Assembly: GCA_013289445.1 (NCBI GenBank)
Contig: JABCZZ010000018.1
Location: 1-33,637, forward strand
Source: Alphaproteobacteria bacterium
GTDB lineage: Bacteria; Pseudomonadota; Alphaproteobacteria; Rickettsiales; JABCZZ01
DNA: 33,637 nucleotides
Direction: 5' to 3'
Every line of letters begins with the position of its first letter. The stretch's first letter is position 1. The position numbers and the translations under genes are program-made. Under the pieces are notes generated by a model that was given only the letters and a program-made list of their open reading frames with translations, ran no database searches and was not told where the DNA came from. Of this stretch, positions 1-1,235 are shown in pieces.

Positions 1-45
1 TTCGCGAATTTCTTTTATGTCGGCGGTATCAACGAAGAATTTCAT
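1..45 (-). CDS. fsa: Transaldolase-like protein Fsa, N-terminal fragment (runs off left edge)
   Basis: The reverse complement of the first 45 bases reads MKFFVDTADIKEIRE, the typical start of the small transaldolase / fructose-6-phosphate aldolase family (TalC/Fsa, about 217 residues). A Shine-Dalgarno-like GAGAGGAG lies about 11 nt upstream of the ATG. The gene continues beyond position 1, so only 15 codons are visible. Its start codon faces the priA start codon across 35 bp. The C-terminal part of the same family is encoded on the opposite strand at 771-1235, so this fragment is probably the displaced 5' end of that gene. A second, complete fsa copy is the alternative. Confidence 0.8.
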   Translation of the reverse strand, partial: MKFFVDTADIKEIRE

Positions 46-80
46 GGTGTGCGCCACTCCTCTCACTTAATCTCTAGCGG

Positions 81-1235
81 ATGTCGCAAGAGAACGGAAG
101 AGAGATTATTGCACAGGGTGCGCGCGCAGGCGTGCTGCTTCCGCTCGCGCTCGATGCCGTTTTTGATTATCACGTGCCGGACGGCATGCAGTTGCGGGCA
201 GGAGATTATGTGCGCGTACCTTTTGGCCGCAAGTTTGCGTATGGCGTGGTGTGGGGACAGGGCAACGGCGAAATAGATGAAAAGAAAATCAAATCCATAG
301 AGTCGCTTTGTGCTTCCCTGCCACCGATGAGTGATGCGATGCGCGCCTTCATTGACTGGGCAGCGTGGTATACGCTGGCTGCACGCGGGATGGTGCTTAA
401 GATGGCTATCAGCATTCCCGAAGCCCTGCTCTCGCCAGAGAAAGAAACGCGTTACCGCTTGACGCTGGACATGGCAGCAAAGCTCACCCCGTCGCGCGCG
501 CGCATCGTCGCTTATCTCAACGATGGCGTCGCTCGTTCGGCCAAAGAAATCACCACGCAGGCCAAAGTATCGGGCGCTGTGCTGCGCGAATTTGCCAAAG
601 CCGGCGGCGTGACCAAGATGCAGCAAGAAGCTGTTGGCGCGCCATCTTCTGCTTTGCTTGCTTCGCCTCCCGAACTTTCGGCCGCTCAAAAAGAAGCCGC
701 GTCTGGGCTTGCGCACAAACTTGCGACGGCATTCTCTGTTACGGTGCTCGATGGCGTAACGGGCTCGGGCATGATCAAGGAAGGCGAGAAACTCGCTAAG
801 CTCGCTAAGAATATCGCCATCAAAGTACCGCTCACCTGGGACGGTCTTAAGGCCTGCAAACATTTCACCAGCAAAGGCACGATGGTCAATGTCACGCTGT
901 GTTTTTCAGCCGCACAGGCCATCCTTGCCGCCAAAGCCGGCGCCACATTCGTCTCGCCTTTCATCGGCCGGCTCGACGATGTGGGACAAAACGGCCTCGA
1001 ACTGATCGCTGAAATCTGTACGATTTACCAGCAGTACGATTCGTTTAAAACCCAGGTGCTGGTAGCCTCTATCCGCAACCCGACGCATATTGTTGAGTCC
1101 GCCAAAATGGGCGCACATGTCGCCACGATTCCGCCTTCGGTCATGAAGCAGCTTGCCCAGCATCCCCTCACGGATAAAGGGCTGGCCACCTTTCTTGCCG
1201 ATTGGCAGAAGACCGGTCAGAAAATCGTCGCATGA
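81..1235 (+). CDS. In-frame chimera: PriA N-terminal region fused to Fsa transaldolase C-terminal region
   Basis: This 384-codon frame is two partial genes. Residues 1-230 match the N-terminal DNA-binding and winged-helix region of primosomal helicase PriA (LPLALDAVFDYHVP, then VRVPFGRKFAYGVV) and stop inside the Walker A motif: GVTGSG is present but the expected following KT is not. From residue 231 (ATG at 771, MIKEGEKLAK) the protein is the C-terminal two thirds of Fsa, including the Schiff-base lysine K248 in IKVPLTWDGL. No helicase core is left, and Fsa lacks about its first 65 residues, so neither activity is expected. The 3' end overlaps the DUF484 gene by ATGA, as an intact fsa-DUF484 operon would. 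Either this is a true genomic rearrangement or an assembly or amplification chimera. Confidence 0.85.
   Translation: MSQENGREIIAQGARAGVLLPLALDAVFDYHVPDGMQLRAGDYVRVPFGRKFAYGVVWGQGNGEIDEKKIKSIESLCASLPPMSDAMRAFIDWAAWYTLAARGMVLKMAISIPEALLSPEKETRYRLTLDMAAKLTPSRARIVAYLNDGVARSAKEITTQAKVSGAVLREFAKAGGVTKMQQEAVGAPSSALLASPPELSAAQKEAASGLAHKLATAFSVTVLDGVTGSGMIKEGEKLAKLAKNIAIKVPLTWDGLKACKHFTSKGTMVNVTLCFSAAQAILAAKAGATFVSPFIGRLDDVGQNGLELIAEICTIYQQYDSFKTQVLVASIRNPTHIVESAKMGAHVATIPPSVMKQLAQHPLTDKGLATFLADWQKTGQKIVA

What the first reader, a model, noticed from the sequence alone, without database searches (positions are those of the whole stretch)
1..1235. Reciprocal priA/fsa breakage: footprint of an inversion with breakpoints inside both genes
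Seen directly: the Fsa N-terminus (MKFFVDTADIKEIRE) lies on the minus strand at 45-1, 35 bp from a divergent PriA N-terminus at 81; PriA stops inside its Walker A motif (GVTGSG, codon 230) and continues in frame as the C-terminal two thirds of Fsa (MIKEG...), followed by the normal DUF484 overlap. A simple deletion does not explain the inverted Fsa start. Inverting a segment of an ancestral divergent pair priA(-)/fsa(+), with cuts at the PriA Walker A and at about Fsa residue 65, gives exactly this layout. Because the visible joint is in frame, the other joint should read Fsa 1-65 followed by the PriA helicase core, also in frame. The shared GGC at the joint suggests microhomology. It could be a real inversion, an invertible switch, or a chimera from amplification or assembly.
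Basis: partly seen in the sequence, partly recalled or inferred. Interest (0 to 1): 0.85.

Follow-up and report, generated by a model that had tools for sequence, protein, structure and literature searches.

The report
Inverted priA/fsa joint, likely amplification chimera
At the very start of this stretch two ordinary bacterial genes appear broken and fused, but the joint has the features of a known DNA-amplification artefact, so it is probably not a real or useful gene fusion.

Summary
Window 1-45 (-) is the start of fsa, 46-80 is a gap, 81-770 is PriA 1-230, and from 771 the frame continues as Fsa 66-219. In relatives priA(-) and fsa(+) are divergent neighbours: 73 of 80 fetched loci; 0 of 80 show the window's same-strand layout. 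The 35-bp gap is native, with the same length in the two nearest relatives. So there is one new joint, at 766-771. It is inverted, spans about 920 bp in the un-inverted order, and probably has 4 to 6 nt of microhomology.

A real inversion needs a second joint, left of base 1, which cannot be read. A fold-back chimera made during phi29 amplification (MDA) explains the same joint without one. Published MDA chimeras are 85% inverted, lie 0-5 kb apart and have overlaps peaking at 6 nt. Neither gene piece shows gross decay. The window ends inside the inverted segment. The two nearest relatives with context carry names that fit an MDA mini-metagenome project. The window's own origin is unknown. I judge it an amplification or assembly chimera (0.72), with a recent real inversion second (0.2). 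Low interest.

The parts
1..45 (-). First 15 codons of fsa (fructose-6-phosphate aldolase / transaldolase family), cut by the window end
   Evidence: Translation; tblastn of P0001 Fsa 1-15, 93%
46..80 (.). Native priA/fsa divergent intergenic region, 35 bp
   Evidence: Same length and alignable in L001 and L002
81..770 (+). 5' part of priA, codons 1-230, ending in the Walker A GVTGSG
   Evidence: Pfam PF17764; tblastn with L001 PriA 1-231, 55%
766..771 (+). The only new joint: PriA GSG|K to Fsa G|MIKEG; up to 6 nt (CGGGCA) could belong to either side. T765 fits only PriA and T772-G773 only Fsa
   Evidence: Codons of L001, L002 and other loci at both sites; inference from the genetic code
771..1235 (+). 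3' part of fsa, codons 66-219 and stop, in frame with the priA piece
   Evidence: Pfam PF00923; 91% to P0001
1232..1990 (+). DUF484 gene, overlapping fsa by ATGA as the usual neighbour
   Evidence: Pfam PF04340; same strand within 3 kb downstream of fsa in 62 of 80 loci
2022..2960 (+). xerC, usual next gene
   Evidence: Pfam PF00589 and PF02899; same strand within 4 kb downstream of fsa in 59 of 80 loci

Best explanation
The joint was made in vitro, not in the cell. During strand-displacement amplification (or an equivalent library step) a 3' end that had been copied leftwards through fsa and priA to the priA Walker A came loose. It annealed through a few bases (probably 4-6) to a strand of opposite sense at fsa codon 65, some 920 bp back, and was extended rightwards through fsa, DUF484 and xerC. 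The assembler followed this molecule and the contig ends inside the loop. The organism then carries intact, divergent priA and fsa like its relatives. Shown: the layout, the ancestral order, a single joint, a possible microhomology, no gross decay of the pieces, and the window end inside the inverted segment. Inferred: that the sample was amplified, that the window is a whole contig, and that the left side continues as the rest of fsa rather than as the PriA core.
For: Ancestral divergent order in 73 of 80 loci; in 71 of the 80 one PriA match runs across the Walker A; same-strand layout in 0 of 80. Native 35-bp gap. The joint matches published MDA chimeras: 406 of 475 (85%) inverted, 337 of 406 inverted ones less than 10 kb apart, priming at short complementary stretches, about one junction per 22 kb (PMC1855051, first two of four parts read); overlap length peaking at 6 nt, mostly 5-8, distance 0-5,000 nt (PMC4595205, passages). 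The pieces evolve about as intact ones do: PriA 1-230 dN 0.39-0.44 for the window against three relatives, 0.37-0.41 among those relatives; Fsa 66-219 dN 0.09-0.11 against 0.09-0.12. If the window is a whole contig, an end inside the 920-bp segment has a chance of about 5% under a plain inversion but is expected where an assembly graph forks. The two nearest relatives with context, L001 and L002, are titled BWOrgHeat_Nextera MAGs; by name (my inference) these fit the Barre Woods mini-metagenomes that were MDA-amplified, made into Nextera libraries and assembled with SPAdes (PMC7065516, passages and one section). No listed match is a PriA-Fsa fusion in the protein search (120 best of 8000 scored; each covers 40-43% of the query) or in 262 genomes of the order (listed matches only; two odd rows opened and found to be complete Fsa).
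Against: The window's source is not known (no genome held); that it was amplified is inferred only from relatives. No coverage or read data. The joint survived assembly, so presumably several reads supported it. No close relative of the organism was listed in the protein database (best Fsa part 92%; best PriA N-part 57-59% over its full length, 61% over half), so an intact copy in the same organism is not shown. With that project's final k of 95 and 200-bp end trimming, a simple fold-back fork would put base 1 at fsa nt 85, not at nt 45 as seen; k=55 would fit. This arithmetic is suggestive only.
Confidence: 0.72

Rival explanations
1. A real, very recent inversion of about 920 bp with both breakpoints inside genes, by microhomology-mediated repair or template switching, that inactivated priA and fsa in this cell or strain.
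For: Geometry fits exactly: ancestral divergent pair, inverted joint, up to 6 nt shared. The window is collinear with L097 (the whole contig of L002) from DUF484 through the oligopeptide-binding protein gene at 19761-21593, apart from genes inserted or unmatched at E 1e-10, so the sequence is otherwise sound there.
Against: No gross decay in either piece, so it would have to be almost new. None of the 80 loci, nor any listed match in 262 genomes of the order, shows it. The contig end falls inside the 920-bp segment by about a 5% chance. It would cost PriA, the replication restart helicase (recalled role).
Confidence: 0.2
2. A reversible (phase-variable) inversion that switches priA and fsa on and off.
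For: An inverted segment between two short inverted matches; both pieces still under constraint.
Against: Shared sequence at the joint is at most 6 nt. In L001 and L002 no inverted match of 8 nt or more pairs the two breakpoints in register within 100 nt (L002 has an 11-nt match 48 nt out of register, L001 an 8-nt match 45 nt out of register). I know of no recombinase that uses such short sites (recalled). Not seen in relatives.
Confidence: 0.03
3. A real inverted duplication in the cell: the joint is the centre of an in vivo fold-back with a second, complete fsa-DUF484-xerC copy to the left.
For: Same letters as the in vitro fold-back (inference; no call separates the two).
Against: Large inverted repeats are unstable in bacteria (recalled); no doubling can be seen in the window; nothing specific supports it over the in vitro version.
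Confidence: 0.03

Closest known systems
Inverted chimeras of phi29 multiple displacement amplification (Lasken and Stockwell 2007, PMC1855051; PMC4595205, 2015)
   Same: Inverted orientation, parts less than 10 kb apart, likely short microhomology at the joint, one joint only
   Different: Not shown that this sample was amplified; seen in an assembled window, not in reads
Divergent priA-fsa-DUF484-xerC neighbourhood of alphaproteobacteria
   Same: All four genes, their order apart from the joint, and the 35-bp gap
   Different: Here the stretch from the PriA Walker A to Fsa 65 is inverted relative to the right flank
Microhomology-mediated inversion in bacterial genomes (recalled)
   Same: Short shared bases, gene-internal breakpoints
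   Different: Second joint not visible; no gross decay

Membership tests
phi29 MDA inverted chimera | Two neighbouring segments joined in opposite orientation | tested here: met
   Relatives have priA and fsa divergent; the window has them fused on one strand
phi29 MDA inverted chimera | Short overlap at the joint (peak 6 nt) | tested here: inconclusive
   The lost bases are not known. GG of the glycine codon and the A after it fit both genes; GGC is the codon at the Fsa site in 14 of the 16 loci and at the PriA site in 46 of the 56 loci where a narrow pattern found the site, out of 81 scanned, so GGCA (4 nt) is likely shared and CGGGCA (6 nt) possible, as with L002 codons
phi29 MDA inverted chimera | Segments close together in the genome (0-5 kb) | tested here: met
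   About 920 bp in the un-inverted order
phi29 MDA inverted chimera | DNA was amplified with phi29 before sequencing | not testable with these tools
   Source of window not given; only relatives L001 and L002 trace by name to an MDA project
Reciprocal genomic inversion | Two joints, the second reading Fsa 1-65 to PriA core | not testable with these tools
   Window starts at fsa nt 45; no PriA core match better than E 0.19 elsewhere in the window
Invertible DNA switch | Inverted repeats or recombinase sites at both ends | tested here: not met
   At most 6 nt in register; only out-of-register matches of 8 and 11 nt in L001 and L002 within 100 nt. Tested on relatives, since the window lacks the other halves
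Functional PriA-Fsa fusion protein | Complete catalytic domain of either parent | tested here: not met
   PriA part ends before the Walker lysine and lacks the helicase; the Fsa part lacks residues 1-65, while the 26 solved relatives listed match an intact Fsa from residue 1 or 3 to 211-214

The most novel reading that the evidence does not exclude
A real, reversible or very recent 920-bp inversion in an uncultured alphaproteobacterium that simultaneously breaks the replication restart helicase PriA and an aldolase, makes an in-frame fusion of both, and is kept in part of the population as a switch.
Probability: 0.05. Interest if true: 0.55.

Novelty: not a real feature. Interest (0 to 1): 0.1.

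Why it matters
If taken at face value, the record would add a false fused gene and a false loss of priA and fsa to a poorly sampled lineage. It shows that a chimeric joint near a contig end can be recognised from gene order in relatives, a native intergenic gap and short microhomology. If the inversion were real, it would be a case of an organism losing PriA abruptly.

Tried and rejected
A simple deletion between priA and fsa: rejected, since in relatives the two genes face away from each other, so no deletion can fuse them sense to sense.

A second fsa copy beside priA: not needed, since the minus-strand start and the 35-bp gap are the native arrangement.

An old or fixed inversion: rejected, because neither piece has stops and dN is like that of intact copies (dS is saturated or undefined, so this tests only gross decay).

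A natural fusion family: no listed match is a fusion (in one search the match list was cut). Two rows, G139 and G086, start at query 155; opened, both are complete Fsa genes matching residues 1-217, and G139 has a PriA match on the other strand beside it. Other rows starting at query 191-221 were not opened.

A misassembly through a long repeat: none linking the two sites was found in window 1-3000 or within 100 nt of the sites in L001 and L002.

Junction pattern in viral contigs: 0 matches.

Short PriA hits P0132, P0146, P0147, P0158 and P0172 were read as possible chimeras: all cross the Walker A as PriA, none ends in Fsa.

Contig-end arithmetic (200-bp trim, k of 55 or 95): k=55 would fit only if fsa codon 64 ends in CG; the final k of 95 does not fit; left as a curiosity.

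Full report
What is there. The first 1,235 bases hold, from left to right: the first 15 codons of fsa on the minus strand (45-1), a 35-base gap (46-80), codons 1-230 of priA on the plus strand (81-770), and, in the same frame, codons 66-219 of fsa with its stop (771-1235), followed by DUF484 with an ATGA overlap and by xerC. Comparison with proteins of relatives confirms every piece; the next best matches in the window are Fsa at E 0.001, antisense to the porin gene, and PriA at E 0.19.

Ancestral order. I fetched 80 genome loci that encode relatives of the Fsa part (the best 80 of 252 places found; L040 and L041 are the two arms of one palindromic contig). In 73 of 80 the PriA start faces away from the fsa start within 1 kb. 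In 71 of 80 one PriA match starts before residue 215 and runs past residue 260, across the Walker A. The two others are L036, whose match is split and whose second piece, from residue 220, still covers the Walker A, and L075, where the contig ends. Seven of 80 gave no PriA match in the stretch held. In 62 of 80 a DUF484 match, in 59 of 80 a XerC match and in 55 of 80 both follow fsa on the same strand; 0 of 80 has PriA upstream of fsa on the same strand, as the window does. In the two nearest loci, L001 and L002, the gap between the two starts is 35 bases, as in the window, and alignable with it: 18 and 19 of 35 bases, reached by 0.15% and 0.03% of shuffles. The left boundary is therefore native and only one joint is new.

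The joint. T at 765 fits only the PriA serine codon, and TG at 772-773 fits only the Fsa methionine codon, so the switch lies within 766-771 (inference from codons). The GG of the glycine codon and the A that follows fit both genes in any case. GGC is the usual codon on both sides in relatives (14 of 16 Fsa sites and 46 of 56 PriA sites that a narrow pattern found among 81 loci), so GGCA is probably shared; with codons like those of L002 six bases (CGGGCA) are. A random blunt joint shows six or more shared bases with a chance of about 0.1%, and four or more with about 1.6%; the two genes' codons favour some sharing here, so these chances are too low. The two ends lie about 920 bp apart in the un-inverted order, in opposite orientation.

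No gross decay. PriA 1-230 of the window differs from L001, L002 and G006 by dN 0.39-0.44, against 0.37-0.41 among these three intact genes; for Fsa 66-219 the values are 0.09-0.11 against 0.09-0.12. dS is saturated or undefined, so only gross decay is tested. Whatever made the joint is either very young or did not happen in a cell.

Why a fold-back chimera is preferred. Of 475 MDA chimeras mapped in a single-cell E. coli amplification, 406 (85%) were inverted, 337 of those 406 joined parts less than 10 kb apart, and about one junction occurred per 22 kb (PMC1855051, first two of four parts of the text). A later analysis found distances from 0 to 5,000 nt, most often 250-300, and an overlap peaking at 6 nt, mostly 5-8 (PMC4595205, passages). 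The present joint fits these ranges. If the window is a whole contig, its left end lies inside the inverted segment; under a plain inversion that has a chance of about 5%, while a fold-back makes an assembly fork there. The nearest relatives with context, L001 and L002, are titled as BWOrgHeat_Nextera MAGs. By name that fits the Barre Woods mini-metagenomes, which were sorted, MDA-amplified and assembled with SPAdes with 200 bases trimmed from contig ends (PMC7065516, passages and one section). That the window has the same kind of origin is a guess.

What speaks against. The window's source is hidden and no genome is held for it. The database listed no close copy of this organism: the best Fsa part is 92% identical, the best PriA N-part 57-59% over its full length, so intact genes in the same organism are not shown. 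A real and very recent inversion makes the same letters. The trimming arithmetic fits k=55 but not the final k of 95.

Function. The fused frame should have no parental activity. It stops before the Walker lysine and lacks the PriA helicase. Its Fsa part lacks the first 65 residues, while the 26 solved relatives listed align from residue 1 or 3 to 211-214.

Searches for the same fusion. None was listed: 120 best of 8000 scored proteins, 4 family genomes of which 3 had a match, and 262 order genomes, of which 237 had a match and only part of the matches were listed. Two rows there that reached into the PriA part of the query were opened and are complete Fsa genes. The junction pattern had no hit in viral contigs.

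Verdict. Observation confirmed; the inversion reading is possible but not required; an amplification or assembly chimera is more likely (0.72). Interest is low.

Noticed in passing
L040, L041 (JAIXPD010000073.1, 42896-56067): The 11,648 bases 43658-55305 of this 98,962-base MAG contig equal their own reverse complement, centred on the contig's exact middle: a palindromic assembly with fsa-DUF484-xerC in both arms, probably an artefact.
   Followed up: partly
window 9444-15461: An outer-membrane factor, RND pump and membrane-fusion gene block (named by eye from the translations, no family search) lies between a porin-like gene and an ABC permease-like gene; in relative L097 the porin and permease matches are 244 bases apart and the block gives no match at E 1e-10.
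   Followed up: no
window 3063-3821: A gene with a weak helix-turn-helix match at its N-terminus (below Pfam's cut-off) sits between xerC and icd; in L097 xerC and icd are adjacent and it gives no match at E 1e-10.
   Followed up: no
L036 9319-9736: The PriA match breaks off at residue 108 and resumes at 220 with only about 150 bases between, so the linker of this PriA is shorter than L001's.
   Followed up: no
window 63-863 (-): A 266-codon open frame runs antisense to priA and across the joint; probably chance.
   Followed up: no
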